A DNA stretch of 64,000 bases from positions 19,200,997 to 19,264,996 of the forward strand of contig CP099843.1 of NCBI GenBank assembly GCA_030062745.1, given 5' to 3'. Numbering within the stretch: position 1 is the stretch's first letter; each line of letters begins with the position of its first letter. Source of the stretch: Capitulum mitella (lineage: Eukaryota > Arthropoda > Thecostraca > Pollicipedomorpha > Pollicipedidae). Below are positions 3,343 through 64,000 of this stretch, one piece after another. The notes under the pieces were generated by a model. It had not been told where the DNA came from and did not search any database. It was given only the letters and a program-made list of their open reading frames with translations. The position numbers and the translations under genes are program-made.

Positions 3343-4612
3343 TTAATCCGCGCCCGACTGGCAGTCGGCGCCGATTACAATCGATTGGGGGGGTTGGCCG
3401 CACCCTCTTGCAAACGACTGGTTGCACAATAAAAATAAGCAAAGCGTTGGAAAGCTCTAGACAAGTAGAATTCGAAATTGGTCTCATTTTTAGTTTTAGA
3501 TCATATATGAGCCATTTACGCCTTATATATGTTTTCTCTCAGTCGACTGTTTGAAACCGAAAAGCGACCTGGAACTTATGGGCTGCGACTGATAAAGTCT
3601 AAGTAACGACATCAATAAACAGGTAAAATCCGCAGATGCCGATAAACGCCTAATTTCTCTGATTTCTTTCATATGTACGCCGAAACGTTGAGTTAAAGAC
3701 ACGGCGATTTTCGCGCCGCTTGCCGGCGTGCGCCGTAGCCGAACGCGGATACGAAATTAACACGAACTAAGTTTAGACTTTCTTGATTTTCGCTACATAG
3801 ACCTTTCCATGTCATATTTGTTTATCCCAGTGTTTCTTGTGATGGTTTTTCATGCTTAAATTCTGGAAAAATTCATTAGTTATCAATCTACGTAATTCAC
3901 GTAGCCTTATTTGCGAGATTCTTTTTATTTCCAAAATATGACATTTTTTTAAACGTTTTGAACATTTTGGTATTTTGTTATTATAAACAACATTAAACAT
4001 TTTGGTATTATCATTTTGGTATGACTTATAATTGTTCGAACCAGTTCTGCTTTTCTGAACCAGTTCTGAGGAATTCACCGCTGATTTTGTTGGCGATGCT
4101 TTTTATCTCATAACAATTATTCGTGATCTGACCCGAGGTCAATGCCTGGAAGTCATTGATACTTTGTCCATTGACGGCAGATGGATGTCTTCGTCACCCA
4201 ACACTAAAAATGTTGTGAACAAATTTCACCAAGCTCCGAAAAAAGGGCGTCATGTCTGAAAGATTGGGTTGGCCTTAGGTCTGACCCGGAAAATTCCAAA
4301 AATCTGATACGGCAGATTTGTTACATCCATGAAGTTCCAAAATTGCTGAAAGTTTTATCGTGATATGATGTTTCACATGTTTTTCGAAAAAGTTACAGGG
4401 TGCTAAACTTTTTTTGGAAATAGGTCCACTTGACCTGACCTAGGTAAGACGCGTGGCTTGACCGGATGTCAGAACTTTGACACAAAACATGAAAATAATA
4501 AATGAAAGGGTACACAAAGTTTGTGGCGCTGAGTTCGTTCGTTCTCTTACAGTCTTGGAAAACCTCGGGGGGGGGCGGTCAAATCCCCCTTCCCTGTCGG
4601 GAGACGGGTTAA
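3343..4612 (-). mobile_element. Family A TTAA-flanked non-autonomous transposon (piggyBac-like), reverse copy
   Basis: TTAA occurs at 3343-3346 and 4609-4612. The ends are TTAATCCGCGCCCGACTG on the left and the inverse of TTAACCCGTCTCCCGAC on the right. The body aligns in reverse to the copies at 10151 and 19073, sharing the segments about a ratio of GGTCA-rich DNA, the TTTTTGGAAATAGGTCC-type stretch and the conserved block near the NACGCC/TATATGTTTTCTC segment. No long open frame is shared by the copies, so it carries no visible transposase. The TTAA target and CCC-starting ends fit piggyBac-type mobilisation, which is an inference from the family rule rather than a protein match. Confidence 0.75.
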
Positions 4613-4856: not shown

Positions 4857-7800
4857 CAGAGATGACGATTCGGATTGATTTGGGATTTGAATATTCGTAG
4901 GGGTACATTCGAATATTCGGATGGAATATTCGAATCTTTTGAAAGTAGTCTCATTTCGTTCCAAAAGGTGCGATCGGAGCAATATGTCGGAATCAGATTG
5001 ATTCACAATTGCATGAACAAGTTACAGCACTTTAAAACAGCGACCGGCGCCGGACACGCCGGGCGGACGGCGGTTGGACGCTGCCGGGGAACGTGCGAAG
5101 GGCCTGACGTCAGCGGCAGAGGGCGCTCAGATAGACAGTCAGAGGAGCAGACTGTCAAGCCGGTAGGATAGTGGTGCTTCGGAGCGGTCATACCGAAATG
5201 AAGAAATGAAATGAAATCAGTAGTATATGAGCAGGTGGCACGGGTTCATCCCAACCATACATTTGACAGAAATCACTCTACCTACTCCCCGCCACCGCAG
5301 TCATAGACAGTATGTGCACAAGAACTAGGTTCCGCTTGGCATTCGGTATTCCCTGTAGTCAGTGTAATAAGTTATTTGCAGCACTGACGTCAGAATGCAA
5401 TTTTTGTGAGAGGTATATGCACACGATTCATTGTTCTCTTTAAAGGCAACAAGTAAACGTATTCAAGATCGTGCTAAATATGACACGTTTAAAAATAACC
5501 AAATCTTCGTTAAAAATCTTCAAAAATCCGTTGCTAACTTTTGCAATGTGGGAACCAGCTGTGGTGCTGCAGGTCCAGCTTCGACTTCGGACCGCTCAAG
5601 TGCTGTGACTCGATTCAGGCGTAACAAACAACATAAAGAAAGCGATAATGTATCACCACATCACTTGGCTGGACTCACACGGTATTGTACACTTTGTCGG
5701 ACTGAAAGAAGATCGCACTGAATCGATCTTCTCTCGGGGCCGGCCGGCCGGCTGTTGAGCGCCAAGCCTGCCCACGAAAACACTCGCTCTGCGGGCGTGC
5801 TGTGAGCTGGCACCACCAAGTTCTTTGCCAGCGGTGCCAGCCTTTGAAAGCTGCACTGATTTGTCTTCCATCATTGCATGGGGAGATGCGTCTGTTCGAA
5901 GCTTTCCTTGTTGAAACCAACATATTTCCGTTTGAAGAGACGCACTGCCATCGTCCTCTGAATTAGAGGATGATTCCATCATAACACGTCTCGTTTTCAC
6001 GGTCTTTCCCGCAGATTCCGTGCTTGCAGCTACCGTAACCGTTGCCGTGGAAGATGTGTTTTCAGTTTCGTTCTTTAGACTTTCGAACAACCGTTCTTCT
6101 TCTTCTCTTGTTAGTGCAGAGGACCTGGAGTATCTTGGGCACACGTTTGCGCTGGCCAGAGTATCTCTATTCTGATGCAGGCCAGTGCGTCGCCTGAAGT
6201 CGTCCAACATGGCACTCTTGATAACCACCAAATAGGTAGGATCATCTTTTTTTTACTTCCATGTGTTTTTCAAGCCGTTTGACCAATGGCAGGACAATTG
6301 GTGCCGTTTGATACTTCTCTCCTCTCAGCAGGGCGGTGGACTCCTTGAGTGATTCTAGAAAAATGGCCAGTTTGTCGTCTCGTTCTGCTTCTTTTTCGCC
6401 AGTCATCAGTGACTGCTCTCCGACCTCACGCAAGCAGTCGTTAACGCTTTGCACGTTCATTAAGCTTGTGCTTTTCGAGGTAACGCGCCCTAGATCGTCC
6501 GGGTCACTTGCCTTGTCCACAGAGATTTGCTCAATTCGTCGGCTCTTATTACGGATTTAACCATTGCAGGGGTTCCACTGTTCCACTGCGTCGGTGCTTC
6601 TTGCTTCAGTGAATGAGTTTTCAGGCTACGGTTTTCTGCTGCTCTTCCAACCCATGCTTCATTTTATAGTTTTTTTTTGGCAAGTTTCTAACCATTTTTT
6701 CATCGTATCAGTCATGGTGCCTATGGCAGGGCTCGCTTTTATAAGTCGATGGCTGACCGTTGACTGAATCAGATGATCCATGCATCCGTTCTCTCCTGGA
6801 CTCAGCTGCGCTGCTCTCATTTGGTTCTCATTGTCCGTCACGCGAACAAACACTTTGTTCTTCACTTTAAATTCGTCTTCCACTTGTATTGTCTTAACCC
6901 TGAACTTTCCTGCCACATGTGATTCCTTCATTTCTTTCGCGCCGAGACTTCAGGATTTGAGCTCCTAGTCCTCGTCAACGTAGTGAACATTAATGTCCAC
7001 AAAGCTAGCTGCGCTAGTGCTGGATCATCCATTAGTTGTTTGCTGCCATCGCCTCAGCATTTTTAGTTCAGCCTTCAGATACTCAGTCTCTGTTTTATGC
7101 AACTCGTCAATGTAGCTGGCTACCGTTATACGATGAGGAAATTTGTACTGGGGACAAAAAAGTGAACAAAAATCACGGAAGCCACCGTCTTCAACAATGT
7201 CTACGGTCCGGTTGTTTCGACAGATCCACTAAGCGATTGAACCAGTAACATCTGTCCATTTCCCAGAATTTCTTCCCCATTTCTTTGGATGATTTTTTCT
7301 GGATGCCGAGGACTGCGACGAAAAGTTTGGAGGCTTGGTTTGTTTCTGCTTTTCTTTACGCCTTTGTTTTAGCGCTGGATGTTTCATTACATAATAAGCC
7401 AGGTTTGTTGTTTGTTTGCAACTGATTACTTTTTTGGATATTTTGCATGTCATTTTCGTTTTGTCCACGACGTTTGATTCAGGAACAACGAAACTGGGAT
7501 GCTCCCAAACCCAGCTTTTGTCGGTGTTTTTGAAGGGGCCGACATACGTTGTTTCTTTTTCCATTTTGTAAAGACCTAAGCGTCAAACTAACCTTCCTGA
7601 ATCTCAGAAACAAAAACAGGAACAGATTTTATGTTGTCATGATTTCCATGGAGCCATCATGAAGACACATGTTTTAATGCATGTGAAGGCAAGTCAGATG
7701 TCTATGAACAGCACCAGCTTTCTACGTTGCAGAGACTGGAGAAAAGAACGTGTGAATGCGGCGCACTCCCGAAATCTCAGATGGAAATGGTCATTTGGAA

Positions 7801-8794: not shown

Positions 8795-10150
8795 AATTTC
8801 TTCTCCAACACTCTGCCTTGCTCTGCCACACGCAGTCATAAACGGCAGCGACGACTGCTTTGACAAAGAGCACTAACGTATTTCGACCTATTCACGTAAT
8901 GCACATCGCGGGAAATTTCGTGGAACTGCAGCGGTTACTTGACTGAATTCATGCTGGCCGCCTTCGAGATTTCGATGTTCGTCGACTGCCGTCAACTTCT
9001 ACATGGCTGAGGCTAACGATACGTTAACACGTTTGATAGGTGATTTTAGTGTTGAAAAGAAACTGGGTAAATAGATTAAGGTTGAACTGCAGCCAGCGTA
9101 CTTACCCCAGTAAAACATGAGCTAACAAGAGCGAGTTGGCAAGAATGAATGGTACCTACGCTTCGATTCCTAAAAATGTCCTCTTTAATCGTACGTGTAC
9201 AATTAAAGATCACAATTTGAGTAGATACACTCATTTATATGGAGGACCTTGATCCAGGACTCGGCTTGACACAATTTTGCTTTGAGGATGGAGAGGAAAA
9301 GCAGCTGATGGGTGAAAATGGAGTAAATAAGTTCCGATTATTGCTGACAATGCCGATTTTAGGTGGTTAGCGTCATGCGCCTGTGAATATAACTATATTT
9401 CAATATTTAAACATGCTTTAAGTTGGGGGCGCCTGCTTCGTATTGTGGGTGCCCATCTCCATTTTGTGGTGCTGGGGCACCCACAAAGAGATAGGAAACC
9501 ACACCCCTGTTTCTGCGTAAGAATACGCCTTACAAACGTCTACACGCGTTACTCTCAAGTGTTGGAGTCTGTCCACCCACTGATTCCAGATATTCTATCC
9601 GATCCTCGTCGCCAGTTTCCTATCTCCTTGGAGCCGAATGGTCATGCCTCCAAAAGGCGCCATTCCCGGACTCGACTTTTTATTATTCTCACGTCACCAT
9701 TGTCCCAAACATTCGTATAAGGAGGTGTGGTACTTCATGCTAATGCAGTATCTGACGTCACCACATATTTTGTGTCGATGCCTTCAGAATAGCATAGCTC
9801 TGGTCCACCAACTCAGAACTAATGCCCATGACTATGGTTGACGAACAAACTCTGTTGTCATGTTGCATGGGTTTACATCTAGAGCTCTGGGTGAGATGGC
9901 AGTGACGTTAGGTATTTAGACTGTTGTAATGGAATGCAGTAAAATTGTTATGAATTGAAATCCAAGGGTGGAGACACCAGCATTACATTCCTTGCCAAAT
10001 CCTGTTCCACCACGAGACTATGCCATTCTTTGCTGCAATTTTCCAGTCTCATTCATGTTTGTATGCGTAATGTGAAATCCGAAATGGTAATTTTAATGTC
10101 AGCAACCATTCCAAGTGTAAAAGGTTGCTGCAATATAATACAATGCATGC
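8795..10150. other. Unassigned intergenic stretch
   Basis: About 1.36 kb between the hAT element and a family A copy. The open frames here are short, lack recognisable motifs and have no convincing splice sites. Nothing further is seen. Confidence 0.5.
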
Positions 10151-11352
10151 TTAACCCGCCCCCGACTGGGGGGGGGGCAGTTGACCGTCCCTTGAGATTT
10201 TTCCGAGATTGCGAGATATCGAACAAACACAGCGCCAGGAAACTTTGTGTACCTTTTGCGTGGTCATTTTTATATCTTTTGTCCAGTTTTTAACCTCAGG
10301 TCAATAAGGTGTCAGACCTAGGTCAGTTCAAGTGGGCCTATGTCCAAAAAAGTTTAGCGCCCTGTAACTTTTTTGCAATAAACTTCCAAGGGTTGGAGAT
10401 TTTGATAAATGCAACAAATCTGCCATCTCGAATTTTTCGGAATTGTTCGGGCCATTGACCTAAGGTTAAGCCCGTTTTCAACATAAGTTGTCGTCTTTTT
10501 TTTTAAACTGAGGAATTTTGTATGACAATTTGAGTGTGGGGAGATCCAGACATGCAGTTTCCCTCAGTAAAGAAAGTCATAATGACCTCCGACCACTGAT
10601 CTGAGGTCAGGTCACGAATAACTGTTACGAGCCAAAATTCACTGCCATCAAATCGGCGATGAATGACTCAGATCAGGCAGAAAATATCAGAACTGGGTCG
10701 TACGATTCCGAATAATACCAAAAAGTTCAAAAAGCTCCAAAGAATTGCAAATTTTGCAAATAAACAGGTTTTGCGAATAAACTCTACCAGCTGTGTAGAT
10801 TGACAACTACTAATTTTTTCAATATTCAAGCACCAGAAACCATCACAAGTACTACTAGGATCAGAAAACAACACATGGAAAGGCATATTTCGCGAGAATA
10901 AGAGAGCGCTAAAATTAGTCCCCGTTAATTTCATACCGCGCTCGCCTATGGAGCCCGCCCAGCAGCGGTGCGAAAATCGCAGTGCCTTTTTCTCAACATT
11001 TCCGCGTCGATATTAAACAAATCGGAGAAATAAGACGTGCATCGGCATCTGCGAACTTTTACCTGTCCTCTGGTACCTTTATCTAGACCTCATCAGTCAC
11101 AGTCTTTGAGATCCAGGCCGTTTCTCGATCTCATGCAGGCGGCGATGAGAAAACATATATGGGGCGTAAATGGTTTACATATCCGAAACTAAACAATGAG
11201 ACCAGTTTCGAGTTCTACTCGTCATGAGCTTTCCAACGGTGTCCTTATTCTTACCGTTCGACCAACCGTTCGTGAGTTACAGGGGGACGGTCAACGTCCC
11301 CCCCCCCGAGTTGGGCGTGCATGGCCCCGACCCACAGTCGGATGCGGGTTAA
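10151..11352 (+). mobile_element. Family A TTAA-flanked non-autonomous transposon, reference copy
   Basis: TTAA at 10151-10154 and 11349-11352 bounds a 1202-bp unit. The left end is TTAACCCGCCCCCGACTG and the right end, inverted, is TTAACCCGCATCCGACTG. A homopolymeric G tract and a GGTTGACCG/GACCGTCCC box lie just inside each end, followed by bodies alignable to the copies at 3343, 19073 and 61803. The interior is rich in AGGTCA-type hexamers and contains AAAAAAGTTTAGCGCCCTGT-like DNA. No transposase frame is seen. piggyBac-type mobilisation is inferred from TTAA and CCC ends. Confidence 0.8.
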
Positions 11353-11719
11353 TGTAACAGATGGGAAGATGTACCATGCTTGTGTGATACAGTGGGCTAA
11401 ATATATGTGTGAATGCATAATGCCCTGGAAGATGCAAAATGTATGTTGGTGGTACGCATTGTCTTTTTCTTAAATTACCTTAAAGTACGTTGTTTTGAGA
11501 TTTCAAAGCACGATTTGGCTCATGTGTTACATTAAGGTACATTGAGGGAACTATGTTAGATATTCAGGACATTATTTTGAAAACTGAGGGCGCTGCTGCC
11601 CCCTAAGAAGTTACAAGTCTCCGATAATGCCCATACGGAACTTGACATTTCCTTGAATCATATGTATACCATAGATGACCATCACCCATCAAACAACTAA
11701 ACCTCAAGACATTGTCCAA
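11353..11719. other. Unassigned spacer
   Basis: Short intergenic stretch between a family A copy and a hAT-type MITE. No gene or repeat was recognised. Its last bases include ATTGTCCA, the left target duplication of the MITE. Confidence 0.5.
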
Positions 11720-15938: not shown

Positions 15939-16146
15939 CCGTGATCCCCCAAACAACCCCCATTTTTTCTCCTCGGATTTGGCCCACTTCATTCTGCATG
16001 CCAGCAAAACCCTCGGCCTCCAGCCTTCATGTACTGACAGGCTGTGTGGTGGCCGGAGAGCCTGGAACCCAGCACAACGTCCCCGAGCTCCAAGCTGACG
16101 TTTTGCTTGTATGTACGTAGATTAGGGTGAGGTGAAAGGGACGGTG

Positions 16147-16880
16147 TAGCCCACGCGGAAGGCTGGTCAGTGACCAGTATGTATGTACCAGTCGTTGACT
16201 ATGTCTACGGCACAGTCATCGACCTCCGATCCGGGGTGGTGCCTGTGTACCTGTTCCTGTTGGAAATCGGCCCTGTCTGCCGCAGCAGAGGGCTGGCCAC
16301 TGCCAGTCTGTTCATGAGGATGTGGGTGAGCAAGCATCACTGCAATGGGAAGAACTTGCTGAGCCTCGGACATATCACAGAGTTCATCATAGGGATCTAC
16401 TTCCCGGTATGGTTTGACGCCAAAGCGAAGCACAGCTTCGCGAACTGGCCAGACCACGGCCTAAAGCAGCTGGATCTAGTGGGTCTGCCGAAGATGATGG
16501 TGCAGGACCTGGTCGGCCCGCACATCAGAAGTTCCGCCTGGTTCTCGCATAGCGAGGCCGCTCCACAAACTCCCTTGAGTTGGAGTTACATGCACTAACA
16601 GAGGTTCACGATAGAGCAGATCCATTGGCTGCGAGGGGACATGTATGCGGGAACGTGCATGAGCCGCTGTTGACTCGCTCGTTCACCAAAGAAGAGATCA
16701 ACGGGCTCGTGGATGAGCTCGTGAAGGTCCGCTGCATCCCGCGGCCAATCGACGGAGAGGTGTGTAAAGCAAGTGACGAGAGCCTGTGAGAACGTGTTCG
16801 GGGTGGCGGCCAGGGACGGCCTCATCAGGTCCGAGGTGGCAGCCGATGCCCACCAGCCGCAGCAAGAAGGACCTCGCCAG
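16147..16880 (+). pseudogene. Broken open frame of an unidentified protein family
   Basis: A plus-strand coding-like stretch reads AEGWSVTSMYVPVVDYVYG, then IDLRSGVVPVYLFLLEIGPV, SLFMRMWVSKHH, ITEFIIGIYFPVWFDAKAKH and SSAWFSHSEAA. It is followed in other frames by EPLLTRSFTKEEINGLVDEL and RACENVFGVAARDGLIRSE. Codon use and hydrophobic periodicity look protein-like throughout, and the pieces appear to continue one another although they are not in one frame. I recall similar anonymous repetitive proteins in invertebrate genomes but cannot name the family or confirm it. It may be a transposon-borne protein or a host pseudogene. No catalytic motif was recognised. Confidence 0.5.
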
Positions 16881-18850: not shown

Positions 18851-19072
18851 ACATGTCCTTTTTTATCCATCGTCGCATCCCGCACCTCAAAGACTGAAAA
18901 TTACAGAGGTGAACTGCATTCTCAGCGCTATTCAAGTTACTTGTGTTTTACGGCGCCATGACCAGATTTTATCATATTGTCTAAGGACTTGCCCAGTACC
19001 GTATACCCTGTACGTGGGCCTGACCTACAGCTAAACATGCTTTAATAGTACATAATAACTGTCATCGATTGG

Positions 19073-20327
19073 TTAACCCGCCCCCGACTGGGGGGGAGGA
19101 CGGTTGACCGCCCCTTCCCCTGAAATTTTTCTAGGGCTGCGAGAGAACGAACAAACGCAGCGCCACGAAACTTCCTGTGCGTTTTGCTTGATAACTTTTA
19201 CACCCTGCGTCAAAGTTTCGACCTGAGGTCAGGTCAGGTGTCTGATCTGATTTGTCAGGTGTCCGTTTGACCTATGTCAGGTCAAACGGAATCTATGTCC
19301 AAAAAAGTTTAGCGCCGCTGTAACTTTTTCGCAAAACAAAATATCACAACAATACTTTTGGGGATTAGAGATCTTGACAGATGCAACAAATCTGCTATCT
19401 CAGACTTTTGGAAATTTCTGAGTCATTGACCTAAGGTCAAGTTCATTTTTATGACATGTCGTCTTTTTTTCGGCAATTGGCGAAATATATCATAACATTT
19501 TTAGTGTGGAGTGACGCAAACATTTGGTTACCGTCAATGGGCAAAATATCAGTGACTTCCAGCCATTCACCTGGGGTCGGGGCACGAATATTTGTTCAGA
19601 GTCAAAATGTACCACCGTCAAAATCACAGATGAATTACTCGGAATGGGTAGAAAATAGCAGAACTGGTTTGCACAGGCGCATGTAATACCAGGAACTTCC
19701 AAGAGTAAAAAAAATGCGTATTTTGAAAATAATCAGGTTTTCGTGAATAAAGCTCCGCCAACTGTGTAGATTGGTAACTAATGAATTTTTCCAGAATTTA
19801 AGCATGAGAAACCATCACAAGAACCAAAAAGATCAGTAAAATGTAGATGGATAGGCTTATTTCGCAAAGATAAAGGGACGATAAAATTAGTTCCCGTTAA
19901 TTTCTTACTGCGTACAGCTGCGGCGCCCGCCGACAACCGGCTTGAAAATTGCCGTGTCTTTAATTCAACGTTTCGGTGTTTATAATGAACAAATCTGAGA
20001 AATTAGACGTGTATCGGCATCTGCGTACCTTTACTTGTACGTTGGTGCCTTTACCTATGCGTTATTAGCCACAGCCCTTGAGATTCAGACCGTTTCTCGG
20101 TCTCATGCAGTCGGCTACGAGAAAACATATGTAGGGCGAGAATGGCTTACATATTACCCAAAACTGAAAATGAGACCAGTTTCGAGCTCTACTTGTCACG
20201 AGTTTTCCAATGATGTGTTTATTTTTTTATCGTGCGGCCAACCGTTCGTGAGTTAGAGGGGGCGGTCAACCGCCCCACCTCCCGGTCGGGCGTGATCGCC
20301 GCCGACCCACGGCCGGGCGCGGGTTAA
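19073..20327 (+). mobile_element. Family A TTAA-flanked non-autonomous transposon, forward copy
   Basis: TTAA at 19073-19076 and 20324-20327; the ends are TTAACCCGCCCCCGACTG and, inverted, TTAACCCGCGCCCGGCCG. The copy is 1255 bp and aligns end to end with the copy at 10151. Near 19210-19290 it has a local expansion of GGTCAGGTCA-type hexamers. No transposase frame is seen. Confidence 0.8.
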
Positions 20328-21189
20328 TGTGAATAACCATGTCATTGTAGAAAATGTGCATAAATAACGACCAGGGCGAAATTCCTTCATACTTAGTTTA
20401 CCAGATTTCGGCGATTCATCGGCTTGCTCAGGTTTTTCACGGTGTAAGAAACGAAAAAATGTAATTAACATCGTGAAAATAATGCCCTCTTTTTCATACA
20501 TATGTCCAGCCCGGGACGTTACCACGCCCAAACCCGGTTTGTGGTGCGAAGTGTCGGCGGAGTTGCTGACTCCTGCGCCGTGGTCATGACCAGTGGAGTT
20601 GCAGGACAAGGTGGCGGTGCGGTTTCCCGTCATTATGGTGATATTCATGTCGTGGTTGTATCGTTCCGCGACAAGTGGAAGGGAAATGCGCAGGCGTATT
20701 CGTACCCTGTTCAGGCTTCGAGGACTTGTATGATTGCGACTGCAGTCAAACACAGCTGCCCTCCTCCCATCTAAAAAGTCCCCTTGCGCGCACCCACATC
20801 TACACATATCTATAGGCGTGTTCAAAATATCTTCTTGTGTATTTGTGTTATTGGTTGGGTGTTTCCTTCATATTTAAATTTCATATTTAATATTTACTCT
20901 TCATATTTAATATTTATTCACTTCATATTTAATTCCTTCATAATTAAAAACTTCCGAACTTGGGATGATAAGACCCCTAGGGTTAATGGATTAGGTTACG
21001 TCACTGGACTCCCTTTCTCACACGCCAGACACCATCTTATGACAGGAGGACCTTTCCTGGCTGGCGGCTCTTGCAAAGGAGCATCCTCTATGGTCCTCGC
21101 AAATGCCTTTTGGTAGATGTATGCCGGGGGCCCACTTACCTCTCCCGGTCAGAGGGCACCCCGCCATGGAATGTAATCTCTGCGGGCGC
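20328..21189. other. Unassigned stretch with a local AT-rich tandem repeat
   Basis: Between about 20860 and 20945 TTCATATTTAATATTTA-type units repeat three to four times. A minus-strand frame ending in family A sequence is not a gene. Nothing else was recognised. Confidence 0.5.
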
Positions 21190-34825: not shown

Positions 34826-36094
34826 TTAACCCTTTTCCTGGAGGGCTAGACGGTATGGTCGATTCCCGGCAGGGGGAGGGCGGATTCGACCCCCCCCCCT
34901 TGGATCTCGAGAACTACACGTCCGATTTCATCGCAACAAACGGCAATCGATTTCCCATCGCGAAAATTTTGAAAGGGTTGGATACAGGGGGGCAAAAATA
35001 TCAAAATCTCGGGCATTCTTCGACTTCTTGTAAGTCCGTTGTTTACCGACTGATCTTGATGACATTGGCATAAATCGAGAGATTTATGCCAATTTAGAAC
35101 TTTTGCCTTTTTAGAACTTTTGCTTTTATTTGAACTTTTAGAAATTTAGAACTTTTGCCTTTTGCCTTTTGCCTTTTATTTAGAACTTTTGCCATTGGTA
35201 CACACATTTGAAATTTTGAGAAAATTCTTAGGCGTTCACAGGGTATCGAAAATAGGAGGATTAGTTTCTCAACAAATGAATGAACAGAAAAGGCAAAAAC
35301 ACTTTTTTGGCTTGTGCTGGTCATGTTATGCTATAGAAGTATTACCATGTTTGTATAATGTTAGGATAGGCAATGCCAGGGACATGAGAAAGGGGGAACT
35401 GAAATTGTCGCATGTTCTGCAGACCAACTTTTGACCTTTGACCTTAAATGACGTCCATTGACCCTGGAGTCACTTGGAATGGTCTCGTGTGCATTTAATA
35501 TTATCTGTAAACGTTTTCAATCGTTTGAATTCACTCTATTTCAAAAATTCCATTTAACGGCTATTGTGATATAGGTTGGCGCACTGACATTTTAGGTCAT
35601 AGCTCCGTGATCCGACCTGATATCAAGCTGAAACTTGATACGCAAGTAGAGGGCATTCTTTTACAGCACATATATTCCGGTTTTGGCATTTGATAAAATA
35701 GCTCCGAAATTGTTACTATAAAACCAAATTTTGACTTATGACCCTGACCTGACCTTGTTAAGTGACCTCAAATGAACAAAATTGTTTTTGCACGTTGCTT
35801 AACTACTTTGCTATACTTTCATTTCAGTTTTTAAGTTCTACCTTAAAAGCGCTATTTTTGGCAATCATTTTCCTTTTACTCTGAACAGTGCCAAAAATGG
35901 TCTCAGGTGCCTCCCAAAAACGTTGCTTGGCTCCGCCTCTGAGCAAAGCAGAATTTCAAGATTTCGTCGCAGAACGTAGAAAGAATATCTAGGAAAAGTG
36001 ACGAGGTTTCGTGAAGCTGTGTCAAAAAGCCTGGAATTGGCAAACAAAAAACCCGAGGGGAGAGGATTCAGCCCCCTGCCGGGAATAGGGTTAA
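34826..36094 (-). mobile_element. Family B TTAA-flanked non-autonomous transposon, reverse copy
   Basis: TTAA at 34826-34829 and 36091-36094 bounds 1269 bp. It is inverted relative to 40495, with shared GAGGGCTAGACGGTATGG, CTCGAGAACTAC and CAGCTTCACG-type blocks. On its minus strand it carries a direct repeat of AGGTCA with one-base spacing (35432-35444, written there as TGACCTTTGACCT). No transposase. At 36095 it abuts a family D repeat, so it inserted at or beside that repeat's end. Confidence 0.8.
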
Positions 36095-36460
36095 GTGGCG
36101 GCGGAAGTGGGGATGGGAGCAAAGTGCCCCATTCATAGACATGGGGAAAACAAATTATCCTCCTCCTCCAAAAAAAAAAATAAAAATAAAAAATGACCGC
36201 GCCACGAGCAAGTTTTTGGCAGTCAGACTTGAAATAACAACTAGTTATGACGTTAAGCGGTTTCAAACCTTTATTAATTGTACCGCTGCGCCACATAGTT
36301 CGTTGGTCAGTTCCGTACAAGTCCGTGAAAATATCTGGTCGTGTTTCTTTCAGGTTGATTCAAATGGAAGCGTACAAAAAGTGTGCATGTAGCGTTTTGC
36401 TGTTTTCGCCGATCGCGATCCAAAGCAGCTCCTTTTGTTCATAGCTGAGAATTATTTTTT
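36095..36460 (+). repeat. Interspersed repeat family D, forward copy
   Basis: Begins GTGGCGGCGGAAGTGGGG directly after the TTAA of family B and follows the inverse of 22752-22400 in order, including TGACGTTAAGCGGTTTCAAA. Confidence 0.6.
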
Positions 36461-40475: not shown

Positions 40476-40494
40476 ATCTCTTACTACTCTGGTC

Positions 40495-41709
40495 TTAACC
40501 CTATTCCCGGCAGGGGGGGCGGAATCCGCCCCTCCTCGTGTTTTTTGCTTGCCAATTCCAGGCTTTTTAGCGCAGCTTCACGAAACTCGGTCACTTTTCC
40601 TAGCTATTCTTTCTACGTGCCGTGACAAAATTTCAAAATTCTACTTTGCTTGGGGCGGAGTCAGGCAACGTTTTTGGGAGGCACCTCATGCCATTTTTGG
40701 CCATGTTAAGGGTAAAAGGAAAATGTCTGTCAAAAACAGAGTTTTTAAGATAGAATTTAAAACTTTAAATGGATGTATAGCTTAATAGTTGGGCCATGTG
40801 CAGATAAAATTTTGTTCACCTGAGGTCATTTTACAAGGTCAGGTCAAGGTCAAAATTCAAAATTTGTTTTTTTCGCAATAATTTCGGCGTCGTTTTTTTA
40901 AATGCCAAACCCGGAATATATATGACGTAGAAGGCTGCCTTCTACTTGTGTACCAAGTTTCAGCTTGATATCCGGTCGGGTCACGGAGCTATGATCTGAA
41001 ATGTCAGGGCGCGTACTCTATATCGCAATAGCCATAAAATGAAATTTTTGAAATAGAGTGAATTCAAACGATTGAAAACGTTTAAAGGTAATATTAAATG
41101 CATAGGAGATCGTTCCAAGTGACCCCAAAGTCGCTGGAGATCATTTAAGGTCAAAGGTCACAAGTTGATCTGAGAAACGTGTGACCATGACAGTTCCCCC
41201 TTTTTCATGTCCCTGGCACCGCCTATGCTAACATTACACAAACATTGCAATGCGATTTGTACTTCTTTATTATAATATGACTAGCAGAAGCCAAAAAAGG
41301 GTGTTTGCCTCTTTTGTTCATCCAGTTGTTAGAAAACTAATCCTCCTATTTTTGAAACCCTGTGAACGCCCATGAATTTTTTCAAAATTTCAGATTTGTG
41401 AAGCCATGGTAAAAGCCCTATCCATAATCTCTCGATTATGCCAGTTTCATCGAAATCGGTCGATAAACAACGGAGTTATAAGAAGTCCAAAAGTACCCCC
41501 CATTTTGACATTTTTGCCCCCCTGTATCCACAAATTTGAAAATTTTGGAAATTTCTTTTTATAAAAATGTAGTTCACGTGACGGCAAATCGATTGCCGTT
41601 TGTTGCGATGAAATCGGACAAGTAGTTCTCGAGATCTCAGGGGGGGGCCGAATCCGCCCCCCCTGCCGGGAATCGGCCATACCGTCTAGCCCTCCGGGAA
41701 TAGGGTTAA
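40495..41709 (+). mobile_element. Family B TTAA-flanked non-autonomous transposon, reference copy
   Basis: TTAA at 40495-40498 and 41706-41709 bounds 1215 bp. The ends are TTAACCCTATTCCCGGCAGG and, inverted, TTAACCCTATTCCCGGAGGG, a near-perfect terminal repeat with G-runs inside. AGGTCAAAGGTCA lies at 41148-41160. The interior is AT-rich with no long frame. TTAA plus CCC ends suggest mobilisation by a piggyBac-type transposase supplied elsewhere. Confidence 0.85.
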
Positions 41710-41858: not shown

Positions 41859-43083
41859 CAGAGGTGCACCAAGGATTTTTTTGAGAGGGAGGGGGGTAGG
41901 CGAAGGCCCCCTGATGGCCTGGACGTTACCGAAGATACATCAAGCCGTCCTGTTCTGCCCACCACTACCCCGTACGAAATTCATGCAGAAGTTAGAAGTC
42001 CTCACGGGCAGAAAGCTCACCAAATTAACCAAAGGAAATTATTTGAACAGCCTTGTAAACATTGTATTTTAAGAACATCAAATATTATACGAATTTGGGT
42101 GCCCACAATTAGTTTTAGAAAACCACACCTGTACTCTCCGCAGCCATCAGAGGTCCCCTCTGCAGGCCGCCAGGAGGCTCCTCTTCAGGCCGTCGGCCCC
42201 CCTCCCCCTCCACAGGCTGTAACAGAGCCCCAAAGGTCGCCAAAGGTCGCCAAAGGTCGCCAAAGGCCCTGCATGCCAGCAGGGGGCCCCTTTATCCGAC
42301 AGAGGGCCATCTACAGGCCGTCAGGAAGTCCTCCAACAGGCCGGCAGGAGCCTCTACAGGCCGGCAGAGAGCCCCTACAGGCTGGTAGGGGACCCCGAAA
42401 CCTGACAGGAAGTTCTTACAGGCCGGCAGGGCCCCACAGAACAGCAGGGGCTACCCATCAGTGAACAGGCGTTTTCCAAGGCTGACAGGGACCCCACAGG
42501 CCGGCAGGGGGCCCTGCAGACCGGCAGAAGGTCCTTACAGACCGGTAGGGACTCCTACCTGCCTGTAGACGGCCCCCTACAGGCCATCAAGGGACATCTG
42601 CATGCCGACAGAGGGCCCCTGTCGACCGGAAGGGGCCACCACAGGCTGGCATGGGCCCCGCAGGACAGCAGTGATTCCCTCCACGAGCCAGATTGGGCTT
42701 TCGGAAGCTGACAGGGGCCCTACAGACCCCCAGGTGGCCCCTACAGGCCGGCAAGGGCCCCCCTACAGGCCTGTAGGAGGCCCCTACGGCTGGCAGGGGA
42801 CCCCACAGGCTGGCAGGAAGCCCGCACAGGTTGGCAGAGCCCCCTACAGGCCGGTAGGGGCCCCTCTATATGCTTGGATCTATATATTTCATCTCTTGTC
42901 TTCTCTTTCCACCGTTCCTACAGCATTTTGGCGATAGTTTTGGTTTTTATAAAGATAATTATCTGACCTCGGTGGGAGGTGGGCCCCCTTCAAACATTTT
43001 GAGGGGTCCTGGGATCCCAAGGACCCCATCGCCTGGCTGTGTCCCTGCCCATCGCTGCCCCCCCCCCCCTTGGATCCGCCCTG
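41859..43083. mobile_element. Second composite G-rich element containing minisatellite array 2
   Basis: The left end is CAGAGGTGCACCAAGGATTT. The right side has two nested candidate ends, CCTGGCTGTGTCCCTG (to 43047) and CTTGGATCCGCCCTG (to 43083), so two termini may abut. The middle (42145-42870) is the same kind of minisatellite as at 38.8 kb. No target duplication could be matched. Confidence 0.45.
42145..42870. repeat. GC-rich minisatellite array 2
   Basis: Degenerate units on CCCTACAGGCCGGCAGGG and CACAGGCTGGCAGG, plus a local triplication of CCAAAGGTCG at about 42231-42262. Same unit type and similar array length as 38815-39535. Confidence 0.75.
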
Positions 43084-45863: not shown

Positions 45864-45869
45864 TTTATT
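45864..45869 (-). promoter_or_regulatory. Candidate polyadenylation signal AATAAA of the 46-48-kb gene
   Basis: AATAAA on the minus strand, about 280 nt after the stop codon at 46148, followed by a G-rich segment. First canonical hexamer that I see downstream of the stop. Confidence 0.4.
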
Positions 45870-46147: not shown

Positions 46148-47219
46148 TTAGGACTTCCCCCCTGACTTCCCACCTCCCTTCCCCCCTGACTTCCCACCTG
46201 ACTTCCCACCTCCTTTCCCTCCTGACTTCCCACCTGACTTCCCACCTCCCTTTTTGCCGCCCCCCGATTGGGCGCCTTTGCCCCGTCTGCCGCTGCGCAT
46301 CTGTCGCATGCAGCGCATGATGTTCCGTTTGGCGGCGCGCTGCCGGGCGCGGCGAGCAGCTGCCTTCCTTGTGGCGGCTTGCTCGGGTGTCAGTTCCGTC
46401 TCCTCACTGCCGGCTTCAGCCCCGTCTTCACCACTGGCCGACTCCGTGCCGCTATCTTCTCCGCTGCCGGCAGAGTTCGATGTCTCCTCGCCCGAACCTG
46501 TTCTTTCCGCAGACCCCTTGCCTTTTTTTGGCTGAGGCTGTGGAAGGTAGTAGATAGCCCTGACAAGGGTGGCGGCGTACAGTTACGAGTACACATATAT
46601 TATCGTGTCCTAGACACAGCCAGCCCCTATTCCCATCAAACCTCAGGGCTATTGGCCATCTTATCACACGGTGTAGTGGCAATATTGCCATTGCTTCATT
46701 TATGGTGCCGCCTTAATTTGCTGTCCAACTCTAGGCATGAAAAGAACTCTCTTACTGGAAGGCTACTTTTGGGTAAGGTACTTTTGATCTCCCTCCCACC
46801 TATTTTTCTCGAAAATTTTGAGAACGATCGGAACTGGGCGCTGCTGCTTTGTGACATTTATGATAATTCATGAGCTCGTCTATTGACACAAAGAAATCGA
46901 AAATCTGCCAAAACAATTTGAAGTTTCAACATTTAAGTCCAATGCTTATGACAAAGACAACGGTTGTCGCAGGCAGATGAGAAGCTTGCGAGAGGACAGG
47001 CGTTCTACGTACGATTACCGCTTGAACTTTATCAGCCGACATCATTTGGGAATAACAGGATGATGAATATACCAAGGCCGAAGCCAAGGTCGGTGAGGGT
47101 CAATGTCATTATAGGTCAAGGTGGACCAGCTGGTGACCTAGTCCAGATTTGCTTTGCAACATGTTGAATTGTGTGACATGTGTGTTCAAAGAACCTACTG
47201 AAAATACGTTTGTTCACAT

Positions 47220-47274
<55 letters not shown>

Positions 47275-48471
47275 CACGTTTTACAACAGTCGCATCATGT
47301 GATTCGGTTCATTACAAGGAAATATCTTTAGTGCAAACAATTTACACAGAAATCATCTTCGATCAAAAACATCATGTAAGGTCACTGACCTCGCTTGACC
47401 TCGTTTGCCTTTGCGGAGGTCAGTAATGCAGAAAGTGCCCTAACATGTCGATGTTTTCTATCTTCACCGATAATACGTTAAATGGTGCTTTTAGCGCCCT
47501 TATTTACATTCGCCACAGGGAGCCTATACCATGGTCACTGTAGCTTTTTCCACATAAACATTTTCTCACTTTTGCGTTCACTGAATGCGTCGCAAAGGGA
47601 TCGTCATGTGGAATACGACCGACTTCCAACGAAACCGTTGGGTAACACGGATAGGAATGACCGCAGTGGTCAGACCATTTTTTGGTCTTGAGCGGAACCT
47701 ACCGTTAAAGGGAGGGGAGGAGTGAAGCCGTCCCGTCGTAATCCATTCTATCATTTTTTTTTTAGATTTAGCCCGAATATTTGTTTTTTATGACAAATCT
47801 CTATGGACAGCGTCCTTTAAAGGAAATACTGCAAACCGACGTTCAAGTTGAAACAACATCTCGGAATCGTCATTAACATTAACCTATACCTATCTGTAAA
47901 ACGCCGGCAAGATTTGTTAGCGATGGAAAGACGCTGCAACGTGTTACTGCTTGCCGAGGCCCCAACAGCGCGTCGGTGGGGCACGATCTACCTTCTAGCC
48001 CGACCTCCGCGTCCCCAGTATCCCCAAACAGTGCTGGCTCTCGGCCCTTTTTCTGCACGTACGCATCCATACGTCCCATACATGCATAAACGTCCCATCC
48101 GTACGCTCTTACGTCGGATCAGTGCATCAAATCACAGTCACCCGACCCACCTGAGGCAGCAGACATGGGCAGAGCAGATCCAGGAATGTGAACAGAACGG
48201 GGAGAACCACTAAGCCACACGGAGCGGCAGCAAATCGGGGGTGACTGAGTCACACAGACTGACAGCAGAGGCAGGAGTGATTGAGCCACACGGAGTGGCA
48301 GCGGAAGCAGAGGTGACTGAGCCACACGGAGTATCACGCGATGGGGACGTGACCAAGCCTAGGACGGCAGCGGATTCGGAGCGTTCCTGGACAGACGTGG
48401 CGAGCACGTACCGCTGCGGAGATCACCGCCAACGCAACCGCCAGACAGACCAGCACCAGGGTGAGCTTCAT
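46148..48471 (-). CDS. Secreted acidic-basic block protein with Gly-Gly-Lys-Ser tail (two exons)
   Basis: Exon 1 (48412-48471) is exactly 20 codons, starting MKLTLVLVCLAVALAV and ending in Ala-Ala, then GTACGT. Exon 2 (46148-46537) follows TACCTTCCACAG and runs 129 codons in phase 0 to TAA. The joined product is 149 residues. Residues 1-20 form a signal peptide with a likely cut near Ala-Ala/Pro-Gln. Residues 21-68 are rich in Ser, Gly and Glu (GSGEETSNSAGSGED). Residues 69-110 are Ala/Arg-rich and probably helical (AAARRARQRAAKR), with a single Cys in MRCMRQM. Residues 111-149 are GGGKSGGKSGGKG-type repeats. A TATA box and initiator lie at correct spacing upstream. The composition recalls adhesive, shell or cement matrix proteins, but no family is recognised. 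The 1.87-kb intron could hide further exons. Confidence 0.75.
47222..47271. repeat. (TA)n microsatellite in the intron
   Basis: About 25 uninterrupted TA units inside the intron of the secreted block-protein gene. Confidence 0.95.
48214..48345. repeat. 36-bp minisatellite just inside the intron
   Basis: GCCACACGGAGTGGCAGC-type units start at 48214, 48249, 48285 and 48321, a 35-36-bp period. Read on the minus strand they would give 12-residue repeats (TPCGSVTSASAA), but that frame is not joined to exon 1 by any splice site I see. Confidence 0.7.
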
Positions 48472-48492: not shown

Positions 48493-48526
48493 TGGGCCGC
48501 CGGCGGGCCCCGGTCGCCACTTTATA
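48493..48526 (-). promoter_or_regulatory. Core promoter of the secreted block-protein gene (TATA and initiator)
   Basis: TATAAA reads on the minus strand at 48526-48521. CCACTCC, matching the initiator consensus YYANWYY, places the start A at 48493, about 33 bp downstream. The 5' leader would be 22 nt before the ATG at 48471, short as in many arthropod secretory or cuticle genes. Confidence 0.6.
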
Positions 48527-48636
48527 GCCGGACCGAGCTAGTGCCGGTCATTACGGTGAGCTGTGCCGCCCGGCGGCCGATCATACGCGGTCAGCGGGCC
48601 AGCCGGCGGCTGACTCACGTCCGCTGCGGCCGCCTT

Positions 48637-48836
48637 CCTGGCCCGGCACCAGCCAGACGTGGCCGCCGAGCCCGCCTCCCTGGCCCGGCACCAGCCAGAC
48701 GTGGCCGCCGAGCCCGCCTCCCTGACCCTGCACCAGCCAGACGTGGCCGCCGAGCCCGCCTCCCTGGCCCGGCACCAGCCAGACGTGGCCGCCGAGCCCG
48801 CCTCCCTGGCCCGACCCCAGCCAGACGTGGCCGTCG
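48637..48836. repeat. 42-bp minisatellite upstream of the promoter
   Basis: Four near-identical 42-bp units (CCTGGCCCGGCACCAGCCAG onward) start at 48637, 48679, 48721 and 48763, with a partial fifth. They begin about 110 bp upstream of the TATA box. The 42-bp period is a multiple of three, which creates long spurious frames on both strands. Confidence 0.9.
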
Positions 48837-51926: not shown

Positions 51927-53076
51927 TTAACCTCATTCCCGTCCCCGCAGCGCTAGAGAACATTCCACTATGAGGGGGGGAGAGCTCGGCCTCCTTGAGA
52001 TCTCGAGAATTATCCATCCGACTCCATGGCAACGGTAACTGATTTACAATGACATAAACTATATTTTGATAAAAAAAACTGAAAATCTCGAAAGGGGTGG
52101 ACAGAGGGGAACCGCAAAACAGTCAATACAGGGGTAGTTTTTGACTTGTTATAACTCCGCTGTTCATAAACCAATTTTGTTGCAATTGGTATGCCTCCAG
52201 AGGAGATCGATAAGGGTTTTTTCATTAGCTGGTACCTTTGAAACATGGGAAAATTCATAGCCTTTCACAGCATTTTGAAAATGGAAAGAGTACGTTTTCC
52301 AAAAGCGAACTAAGATAAAAGTTTAAAACATTCCATTTAATTTTCACTAGTCATGCTGTACCTAAAAAGTACAGATCGCATTACATTGCTCGTAGAACGT
52401 TGGCGTAGGCGGCGACAGAGACATGAAAAATGGGGAACCGTCATGGTCACATGTCCATCAGGTCAACTTGCGACTTTTGACCTTAAATGGCTTCAGATTG
52501 CTTCAAAGTCGCATGGAATGGCCTTGAGCTCATTTCATAGTGTCTGAAAACGTTTCCAAACATTTGAATTCAGTGCATTTCTAAAATTCCTGTTTACGAC
52601 CGTTGTGATAAAACGTGCGCGCACGGACATTTTAGGCCATAGCTCTGTGACCCGACCTGGCGTCAACGTGAAACCTGACGCACAAACAGAAATCACTGTT
52701 CTTGGCCTTGTGTACTCCAAATTTCGCGTTTTAGAGTAAGCATTAAAAATATTTACATAAAACCAGTGAACGCAAGTATTTGCCTATTCACTCGTGTGAT
52801 ATTTCAAGTTTTATCTTAAAAACTCCCTGTTTGGCAATTATTTTTCGTTTACCTTCAACAGCGCTAAAAATAGCCCGAGGCGCTTTCCAAAAATGTGGCC
52901 TGGCTTCGCCTCTGAGCAAAATAGAATTGCGAAAACTTGTCCCTAAAAGAAGAACAGCTAAATAGGAAATGTGACCAAATTTCCTGAAGTTGTTTCTAAA
53001 ACCTTTGACATGACAAGCAAAAAACCTCAAAGGGGCTTCTGACGCCCCCCGTCCCCACATATGGGGATGGGGTTAA
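51927..53076 (-). mobile_element. Family B TTAA-flanked non-autonomous transposon, reverse diverged copy
   Basis: TTAA at 51927-51930 and 53073-53076 bounds 1150 bp. It shares GAGATCTCGAGAATTA, GACCTTAAATGGC and the GTTTACCTTCAACAGCGCTAA-like block with other copies, in reverse order to 40495. The tandem AGGTCA pair is worn to TTTTGACCTTAAA. No coding capacity. Confidence 0.75.
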
Positions 53077-61802: not shown

Positions 61803-62780
61803 TTAACCCGCCCCCGACTGGGGGAGGGCGATTGACCGCGTCCCCTGAGGTTTTCCGAGATTACGAGAGAACGAACGAACGCAGCGCCACGAAAGTTTGC
61901 GTATCTTTTGCTTGGTTATTTTTCCAACTTGACGCAAGTTTTTGCCCTCAGGTCAAGTGAGGTGTCTGATCTAGGTCAGGTCAAGTGGACCTAACTCCAA
62001 ACAAGTTCAGCGCCCCGTAACTTTTTCGCAAAACATATCACAACAAAACTTTCAGGGGTTAGATTTCAATAAATGCAATAAATCTGCCATCTCGGATTTT
62101 TCGGAAATGTCCGGGCCACTGATCTAAGGTCAAGCCCGTGTTCAGCGCGTTTTTTTCGAAAACTAATAGCAAGAAGTTTGAAAAGTTTCAAAGAATTGCA
62201 GATTTTGAAAATACAGAGGCTTTCGCGAACAAAGCTCCATCAGTTGTGTAGACTGATAACTACACATTTTTCAACATTTTAGCACGGAAAACCATCGCAA
62301 AAACCACTAGGATCAAGAAATAACACTTGGAAAGACATGTTTCGCGGAAATAAAACAACGCTAAAATTGGTTCCAGTTAATTTCATACCACGTTCGTCTG
62401 CGGCGCCCGCCGTGCAGCGTTGCGGAGATTGTCGTGCCTTTAACTCTACATTTCCGAGTATATATTACATAAATCAGAGAAATTAGACGTGTATCGGCAT
62501 CTGCGGACTTTTACCTATCCGCTGGTGCCTATGTCTACACTTTATTAATCACAGCGCTTGAGATCCAGGCAGTTTCTCGGTCTCATGCAGGCGGCTATGA
62601 GAAAACACATATAGGACGTAAATAGCTTACATATTATCCAAAACTAAAGTGAGATCAGTTTCGAGGTCTACTCGTCACGAACTTTCCTTATCGTGCGACC
62701 AACCATTTCGGAGTTAGCGAGGGGCAGCCAACCCCCCAGTCGGGCGTGCAAGTCTCCGGCCGACAGTCGGGCGCAATTAA
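61803..62780 (+). mobile_element. Family A TTAA-flanked non-autonomous transposon, internally deleted copy
   Basis: TTAA at 61803-61806 and 62777-62780 bounds 978 bp, about 200-280 bp shorter than the other complete copies. The missing part lies after the segment ending near 62160. Left end TTAACCCGCCCCCGACTG; right end worn. Contains AGGTCAGGTCAAGTGGACC at about 61973. Confidence 0.75.
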
Positions 62781-62971
62781 CAGACAAGGGTGTCGTTTTG
62801 TGCAAGTAATTACAAGGGGAGTGGGTGGGGAAAAACAATGAGGGTTTGACAGCCTACCCTTCGCTCAAATGTAACTTTCTTAGGCGATTTAGCCCTCTTT
62901 ATTTTGTCGGATGGCATTTTTTACCTTTATTTGTTGGTTATCATTTACCAAATAATAAACTGTTTCTCCTT

Positions 62972-64000
62972 TTAACCCAATTCCGGTTTGGGGGGCGGGG
63001 CTTCGGAAACCAATCTCGTTTTTTGACTGCCATTTTCAGGGTTTCTGAAGCAGCTTCACGAAACTTGGTGCATTTTCCTGTCTATTCTTCTTACTTATTG
63101 TACCAAAACTGCACGGTTTCATACTACTCACGGGCGAAGCCAGGCCGCGTTTTGGGATGCACTGCAGCGGCCGTTTTTAGCTCCGTTGAAGGCAAAAGAA
63201 ATGTTACTGCCAAAAGTAGCTAGTTTAAGGTACAACTTGATACGAGTGTACGGGTAAGTAACCAGGCAAGCAAACAAAATCATTTTGTTAATTTTAGGCC
63301 GGTTAAAATGATGAGGTAAAGGTCGAAAGAAAAAAACTGTCCTTACGTTAATAATTTTGGCTCTAATTTTCCAAATGCAAAACCCAGAAGACTTATGACT
63401 CAAGACTGCACTTTACTTATGTACAAAGTTTCAGGTTGACACCAGGTTGGATCAAAGAGCTGTGACCTGAAATGTAACAGCGCGTACCTTACATCGTGAC
63501 CACCATAAATTGGAATTCTAGTAAATGACGAAACATTTTCGAAGAATTTGAAATGCACCTAAGGTCATTCTGTGACTGAGGCAACTGAAGGTCATTTAAG
63601 GTCAAAGAATTCGACCTGATGAACACGTTACCATGGCACTTCCCCTTTTTTCATGTCCCACACGCCGCCTCTGCTAGCATTATGCAAAGTAATATGACTT
63701 GTATTTTTCAGTGTAACATCACTAGTACAGACTTTTTTTAATGGTTCTCCCCTTTTCGAAACCCTGTGAACCTCTATGAAGTTCCTCGGAATTCCAAACA
63801 TAGGGATCATTGGTAAAACTCCCATTCATAAACCCGATTTACGCAAATTGCATCAAATCGGTCCATAACCAGCAGAATTATAACAAATCCAAAAATGTCC
63901 TCCATTTCAAATTTTCTCGCCCCGGTATCCACCCCTTTCAAGATTCTGAAAACCTTTTAATGAACATGTAGTTGACGTCATGGTGAATCGATTACAGTCT
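62972..64000 (+). mobile_element. Family B TTAA-flanked non-autonomous transposon, cut by the window end
   Basis: Begins TTAACCCAATTCCGG with a G-run and follows the forward order of 40495 (AGCAGCTTCACGAAACTTGG, GGTCATTTAAGGTCAAAG, and CCCTGTGAACCTC-type blocks). The right end is outside the window. The second AGGTCA of the tandem pair is worn here. Confidence 0.75.

What the first reader, a model, noticed from the sequence alone, without database searches (positions are those of the whole stretch)
46148..48471. Undescribed secreted block-copolymer-like protein: acidic Ser/Gly/Glu block, Arg/Ala helix, Gly-Gly-Lys-Ser tail
Two exons join in phase at consensus GT-AG sites to give a 149-residue secreted protein. 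It has a signal peptide, an acidic half, a basic helix with the only Cys, and a repetitive cationic tail. Charge-segregated low-complexity secreted proteins are typical of adhesives, cements and biomineral matrices; this one matches none that I can name. Agreement of promoter, signal peptide, phase and stop makes chance unlikely.
Basis: partly seen in the sequence, partly recalled or inferred. Interest (0 to 1): 0.78.

Follow-up and report, generated by a model that had tools for sequence, protein, structure and literature searches.

The report
Candidate orphan secreted charge-block protein
A short animal gene model reads as a secreted, mostly unstructured protein with a negatively charged half and a positively charged half, possibly part of a glue or matrix, but only its signal-peptide exon is well supported and no relative could be found.

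Summary
The described sequence is there. On the minus strand, exon 1 (48471-48412) and exon 2 (46537-46148) join in phase 0 into a 149-residue protein. Exon 1 is well supported: by my rule it is the window's only signal peptide; one as hydrophobic with a TATA box arises about 0.005 times per shuffled window. Exon 2 is weaker. About one comparable acceptor-plus-ORF per window is expected by chance, its unique part stays open in 32% of shuffles, and its 3-base periodicity is not significant. Position and phase beside exon 1, synonymous changes in the tail repeats, and a downstream AATAAA favour it. The mature chain is an acidic Ser/Gly/Glu block, one predicted Arg/Ala helix, and a Gly/Lys/Ser tail. 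The best family hit, New_glue, is below cut-off and mostly survives shuffling within blocks, so it reflects layout, not ancestry. Best reading: an orphan secreted polyampholyte, perhaps phosphorylated, of a glue or matrix (0.4). Rivals: a mis-paired exon 2, or an antimicrobial precursor. Interest is modest.

The parts
48521..48526 (-). TATA box (TATAAA); a YYANWYY-like initiator (CCCACTCC) has its A near 48493
   Evidence: sequence; initiator motif recalled, not scored
48412..48471 (-). exon 1 coding part: signal peptide MKLTLVLVCLAVALAVISAA, ends in phase 0 before GTACGT
46538..48411 (-). proposed intron, 1874 nt, GT-AG; contains an (AT)n run at 47222-47270 and 36-bp repeats at 48209-48332
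46382..46537 (-). exon 2, first part: short Lys-rich lead, then acidic Ser/Gly/Glu block (protein residues 21-72 of 149)
   Evidence: 5 S-x-E motifs in residues 29-72, 3 of them SGE
46295..46387 (-). exon 2, middle: Arg/Ala-rich predicted helix (residues 71-101) with the only mature Cys (residue 96)
   Evidence: single-sequence AlphaFold2, 10-residue block pLDDT 86-92
46148..46294 (-). exon 2, end: Gly/Lys/Ser tail (residues 102-149), its last part made of 12-bp (36-bp) repeats, and TAA stop
45864..45869 (-). AATAAA, possible polyadenylation signal 278 nt after the stop (24 such hexamers on this strand of the window)
48630..48833 (.). 4.9 copies of a 42-bp GC-rich minisatellite starting about 105 bp upstream of the TATA box; any role is unknown

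Best explanation
A two-exon gene for a small secreted polyampholyte. Exon 1 encodes a cleaved signal peptide. The mature 129 residues (if cut after residue 20) are a short basic lead, an acidic Ser/Gly/Glu block (residues 29-72, net -12), then a basic part (residues 73-149, net +24) made of one Arg/Ala-rich helix (about 71-101) and a flexible Gly/Lys/Ser tail. Most likely the S-G-E serines are modified in the Golgi (Fam20C-type S-x-E phosphorylation). The acidic and basic blocks then pair between chains or with mineral, polysaccharide or other proteins, so the protein condenses or anchors in an extracellular glue or matrix. Shown: the sequence, the in-phase join, the charge segregation, and the signal peptide by rule. 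Predicted: the helix. Inferred: splicing, modification, condensation and tissue.
For: Exon 1 is the only stringent signal-peptide ORF in the window and has a TATA box; chance for one as hydrophobic with a TATA box is about 0.005 per shuffled window. Exon 2 is the only stretch on either strand with an acceptor this good followed by 129 or more open codons, and it is in phase 1.9 kb downstream. In the tail repeats, the 5 single-base differences I counted from the unit list and the last codon all fall at third positions and are synonymous; the one other change (TC to GG, Ser to Gly, in two units) is not. Charge segregation was reached in 0 of 20,000 shuffles. SGE is enriched in the acidic block (3 against 0.43, P 0.004; S-x-E 5 against 2.2, P 0.026; block chosen after seeing the sequence). 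The New_glue profile (Drosophila new-glue is listed as a secreted glue in a table of PMC3986406, passage) sees the same block order: 25.7 bits for the real chain, at most 14.3 in 5 full shuffles, 14.3-27.0 in 6 within-block shuffles, not reported in 2 block swaps. One confident helix, the rest of low confidence.
Against: No homologue in the collections and libraries tried. No expression data. Exon 2's openness (32% of shuffles), periodicity (P 0.10) and residue entropy (P 0.09) are not significant. Four of the five repeat changes are third positions in the antisense frame as well (the fifth lies outside it), so the repeat argument does not choose the strand; two of the five are the same change and may be one event. 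Casein-kinase-2-type motifs are not enriched (P 0.62). There is no Tyr, and the mature Cys is single, so DOPA cross-links and disulphides within the chain are not available.
Confidence: 0.4

Rival explanations
1. Exon 1 is real but exon 2 is a non-coding GC-rich repeat island, or an exon of something else; the true gene has other downstream exons.
For: About 1 acceptor-plus-ORF of this quality is expected per shuffled window. The unique part of exon 2 is open in 32% of shuffles, and 4 of 6 frames hold long open frames in the region. A + strand acceptor-like site (score 3.19) precedes the antisense DFPP-repeat frame.
Against: Strand, phase and distance coincide with exon 1 (about 0.015 by chance, estimate). 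The next longest in-phase candidate in 30 kb, with acceptor scores down to 2.6, has 92 codons. On the + strand, among phase-0 donors scoring at least as well between 42001 and 46130, only one ATG exon was found, inside a tandem repeat at 42602-42853. An AATAAA follows exon 2.
Confidence: 0.33
2. A precursor of a cationic antimicrobial peptide: signal peptide, acidic pro-piece that keeps the peptide harmless, then an Arg-rich helix plus Gly/Lys tail released by proprotein cleavage.
For: Acidic half (net -12) followed by basic half (net +24), a helix, and basic cleavage-like sites RRAR at 82-85, KR at 90-91, RR at 104-105. Gly-rich antimicrobial precursors with a signal peptide and a pro-peptide exist (passage of PMC11772090).
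Against: The helix is not amphipathic overall (moment P 0.26); only its last two 18-residue windows reach 0.50. No furin site R-x-[KR]-R. With this many Arg residues dibasic pairs are expected anyway.
Confidence: 0.17
3. A small secreted proteoglycan core: the Ser-Gly pairs flanked by acidic residues carry glycosaminoglycan chains that the basic half binds.
For: Four Ser-Gly pairs, at residues 35, 45, 49 and 55, in the acidic block, near Glu/Asp (consensus recalled).
Against: Three of the same serines also fit S-x-E phosphorylation; no motif library for glycosaminoglycan sites was run.
Confidence: 0.06
4. A peptide-hormone precursor releasing NIMRCMRQMRS-amide from KR-NIMRCMRQMRSG-RR.
For: KR at 90-91 and GRR at 103-105 flank it.
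Against: A single copy, inside an Arg-rich predicted helix, with a low-complexity tail that such precursors rarely have (recalled); Pfam gave no hormone family at E 1.
Confidence: 0.03

Closest known systems
New_glue (Pfam PF21827; that its members are Drosophila salivary glue proteins is recalled, Ng-1 as secreted glue is)
   Same: Signal peptide, then a low-complexity Ser-rich block, then a basic block; the profile aligns over residues 1-102 at 25.7 bits
   Different: Below the curated cut-off (31). 5 of 6 within-block shuffles keep at least 20 bits, so the match is layout, not sequence. It ends at residue 102, so the GGKS tail lies outside it.
Sa-3C and the Pc/Sa cement proteins of sabellariid tubeworms
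   Same: Sa-3C is described as a diblock copolymer-like cement protein; Ser phosphorylation is proposed to be by FAM20C (passages of PMC12621633)
   Different: Sa-3C is SY-rich then GY-rich; this protein has no Tyr. No sequence comparison was run.
Barnacle GSrCP (Gly/Ser-rich) cement proteins
   Same: Gly/Ser/Ala/Thr low complexity flanked by highly charged regions rich in Lys and Arg (passages of PMC5099703)
   Different: Those named are 19 and 43 kDa, and their low-complexity blocks are small and uncharged; here the Ser block is itself acidic. No sequence comparison was run.
Glycine-rich proteins of ticks (cement and other roles)
   Same: Secreted and at least 20% Gly, the definition in the abstract seen (35 of 149 here); one is reported to condense into adhesive forms (passages of PMC11772090)
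   Different: The condensation described rests on cation-pi pairing of regularly spaced residues; this chain has no aromatic residue. No sequence comparison was run.

Membership tests
New_glue (PF21827) | whole-protein score at or above the curated cut-off of 31 bits | tested here: not met
   25.7 bits, E 9.8e-6
New_glue (PF21827) | residue-level similarity beyond composition and block order | tested here: not met
   6 within-block shuffles score 14.3-27.0 bits, one above the real chain
New_glue (PF21827) | signal peptide followed by Ser-rich then basic block (layout inferred from the controls and recall) | tested here: met
   5 full shuffles score at most 14.3 bits and 2 block swaps are not reported
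Conotoxin precursor (PF02950) | curated cut-off (25.1 bits) and a Cys framework in the mature part | tested here: not met
   18.5 bits, best stretch residues 1-34; one Cys in the mature part; a block-swapped control still scores 17.5
Sabellariid-type cement proteins | Tyr (DOPA), poly-Ser or His-rich sequence | tested here: not met
   no Tyr or His, and 18 Ser of 149 with no two adjacent; traits from passages of PMC12621633
Fam20C-type secreted phosphoproteins | S-x-E sites in a secreted chain | tested here: met
   5 S-x-E in residues 29-72; motif stated in PMC12621633
Fam20C-type secreted phosphoproteins | phosphate on those serines | not testable with these tools
   needs mass spectrometry
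Amphipathic-helix antimicrobial peptides | amphipathic cationic helix | tested here: inconclusive
   helix predicted at 71-101; moment 0.29 against 0.22 in shuffles, P 0.26; the last two 18-residue windows reach 0.50

The most novel reading that the evidence does not exclude
A single small secreted chain that holds both partners of a complex coacervate: a phosphorylatable acidic block and a cationic helix-plus-tail. It would be a one-component, salt- or calcium-set glue or mineral scaffold that needs no DOPA and no aromatic residues, from a family not yet named.
Probability: 0.12. Interest if true: 0.6.

Novelty: new variant of a known kind. Interest (0 to 1): 0.27.

Why it matters
If expressed as predicted, it is a compact natural polyampholyte whose two oppositely charged blocks lie in one 129-residue chain without Tyr, Phe or Trp. 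That would make it a simple test case for how charge blocks alone drive condensation or matrix binding. If exon 2 is wrongly paired, it is a caution that low-complexity GC-rich repeats give long open frames and persuasive-looking proteins.

Tried and rejected
Own-genome search: no whole genome is held for the window. Homologues: none in PDB sequences at a meaningful level (3 rows up to E 1, best E 0.027, on a Gly-rich stretch of a 'Tet4 Variant'). None confirmed in viral contigs (152 pattern matches, 0 relatives) or GTDB genomes (590 pattern matches, 0 relatives); no match in phages or plasmids or NCBIfam. Those collections hold no animal genomes by their descriptions, so the misses say little. 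A text search for six peptide strings from the protein found 0 papers. Foldseek against PDB gave 0 matches, as expected for a low-confidence single-helix model (mean pLDDT 63.9).

Naming the animal: I tried coding neighbours. Pfam on 136 open frames starting beyond 3300 gave 0 families at E 0.01; a scan of viral contigs with the reverse-transcriptase piece gave one 13-residue match only. I leave the organism as an unnamed animal, which itself rests on my recall of the retroelement type and the spliced gene model. Barnacle or tick, which I considered from G+C content and gene poverty, is a guess from memory and carries no weight.

Rejected: conotoxin-like (below cut-off); cytomegalovirus UL20A, DUF4553 and PFF1_TM (all below cut-off); paralogues in the window (tblastn without filters found, besides the gene itself, only weak matches, best E 0.039 at 43083-42997).

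The first version of my count of acceptor-plus-ORF chains returned 0 in the real window because the cut-off of 3.60 lies just above the unrounded score of the real acceptor; with a lower cut-off replaces it.

Full report
What is there. On the minus strand, ATG at 48471 opens a 20-codon exon, MKLTLVLVCLAVALAVISAA, that ends before GTACGT at 48411. Exon 2 begins at 46537 after CTATCTACTACCTTCCACAG and runs 129 codons to TAA ending at 46148. Joined in phase 0 they give 149 residues. A TATA box lies at 48526-48521, 55 nt upstream of the ATG, and AATAAA lies 278 nt past the stop.

Exon 1. With a fixed rule (basic n-region, 11 uncharged residues of mean hydropathy 2 or more, small residues near a cut), this is the only hit in 64 kb on both strands, and it has a TATA box. 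First-order shuffles in 1-kb blocks give 1.7 such ORFs per window on average, and 4 of 60 shuffles had one with a TATA box. At this exon's hydropathy (3.31) shuffles in 500-bp blocks give 0.02 per window, and 0.005 with a TATA box (200 shuffles). The rule is mine, not SignalP, and I had seen the exon when I wrote it.

Exon 2. It stands out in its surroundings: the acceptor is in the top 1.6% of AGs on the strand, and no other in-phase candidate within 30 kb downstream with an acceptor score down to 2.6 exceeds 92 codons (generic splice weights from memory). It is the only acceptor-plus-ORF of 129 codons in the whole window, but shuffles give 1.03 on average (100 shuffles). From that density I estimate about 0.015 for one within 1.9 kb on the right strand and in phase. 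Against it: the unique 285 bp are open in 32% of 2000 shuffles, period-3 power has P 0.10, and residue entropy has P 0.09. Four of six frames hold an open frame of at least 120 codons overlapping the stretch. The tail is a 12/36-bp tandem array. Among its eight units, listed, and its last codon, I count five single-base differences from the common unit, all at third positions and synonymous. Two of the five are the same change and may be one event. The other change, TC to GG, turns Ser into Gly and occurs in two units. I did not count the less regular units before these. Five of five at one codon position is about 0.012 allowing for three frames and if independent, but four of the five are third positions in the antisense frame too (the fifth lies outside it), so this does not choose the strand. 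I put the joined gene model at about 0.65, the sum of the readings that need it.

The protein. Mature residues 21-149 have net charge +15; residues 29-72 are -12 and 73-149 are +24; 0 of 20,000 shuffles reached the charge segregation. The composition is 35 G, 19 A, 18 S, 17 K, 12 R, 11 E of 149, with no Tyr, Phe, Trp or His and one mature Cys. AlphaFold2 without an alignment predicts one helix at mature residues 51-81 (71-101 of the precursor) with block pLDDT 86-92 and the rest low (mean 63.9, pTM 0.30). The helix is not amphipathic overall (P 0.26), though its last two 18-residue windows reach 0.50. The acidic block holds 5 S-x-E motifs (2.2 expected, P 0.026), 3 of them SGE (0.43 expected, P 0.004); casein-kinase-2-type motifs are at chance (P 0.62). 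The block limits were chosen after seeing the sequence.

Families. Pfam gives five rows up to E 1, all below cut-off: New_glue at 25.7 bits (cut-off 31, E 9.8e-6), conotoxin at 18.5 (25.1, best stretch residues 1-34), UL20A at 17.3 (27), DUF4553 and PFF1_TM. For New_glue, five chains with a fully shuffled mature part score 14.3 bits or less (one of them not reported), and the reversed mature part is not reported. Six chains shuffled within blocks score 23.9, 27.0, 24.3, 22.3, 14.3 and 20.1; two block-swapped chains are not reported. So the profile recognises signal peptide, Ser-rich block, basic block in that order, and the match carries no evidence of descent. NCBIfam gave nothing. PDB sequences gave only weak matches, Foldseek none. 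Viral contigs, GTDB genomes, phages and plasmids gave no relative; none of these collections is meant to hold animal genomes.

Mechanism. I commit to a secreted polyampholyte whose acidic serines are probably phosphorylated and whose charged blocks pair with each other or with matrix, at 0.4. Analogues, seen in passages only: diblock Sa-3C and the FAM20C proposal for tubeworm cement (PMC12621633), barnacle Gly/Ser-rich proteins with charged flanks (PMC5099703), tick glycine-rich proteins that condense (PMC11772090), and Ng-1 as a secreted glue (table in PMC3986406). The first three differ in residues that matter for their chemistry. The main rivals are a wrongly paired exon 2 (0.33) and an antimicrobial precursor (0.17).

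Novelty. No relative was found, but the searches could not reach animal sequence collections. Eight text searches were seen as listings with starts of abstracts, apart from the passages named above; in what I saw, none describes this protein. Diblock secreted proteins are a known kind; a Tyr-free acid/base diblock would be a variant of it. The layout is suggestive and the evidence for translation thin, hence interest 0.27.

Noticed in passing
227-2342 (-): Pieces of a retroelement in several frames: RNase H-like and reverse transcriptase domains above cut-off, a retroviral-type protease below cut-off. Frames are interrupted; described only.
   Followed up: partly
16131-16595 (+): 155-codon open frame covering the strongest 3-base periodicity of the window (5.54 at 16246, highest of 671 stretches). 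No Pfam match at E 0.01, best PDB row E 0.45, no PHROGs match. Possibly a real exon or transposon gene of unknown kind.
   Followed up: partly
5656-6252 (-): 199-codon open frame with raised 3-base periodicity (2.47 at 5796) and a Ser/Glu-rich, exon-like sequence; one Pfam row below cut-off, none in PHROGs.
   Followed up: partly
3343-4612, 10148-11355, 19070-20330, 61803-62774: Dispersed repeat family of about 1.0-1.3 kb, 69-80% identical, both orientations; nature not examined.
   Followed up: no
34826-36095, 40494-41709, 51973-53026, 62969-63993: Second dispersed repeat family, 65-82% identical between matching pieces.
   Followed up: no
38.9-39.5 and 42.2-42.9 kb: Related 20-21 bp GC-rich minisatellites in two nearby arrays, with long open frames.
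   Followed up: no
48209-48332 and 48630-48833: 36-bp repeats inside the proposed intron near its 5' end and a 42-bp minisatellite upstream of the TATA box; they flank exon 1 and might be regulatory, untested.
   Followed up: no
46152-46535 (+): Antisense open frame with DFPP repeats, preceded by an acceptor-like site (score 3.19); no Pfam match. Kept as part of the rival that exon 2 is not what it seems.
   Followed up: partly
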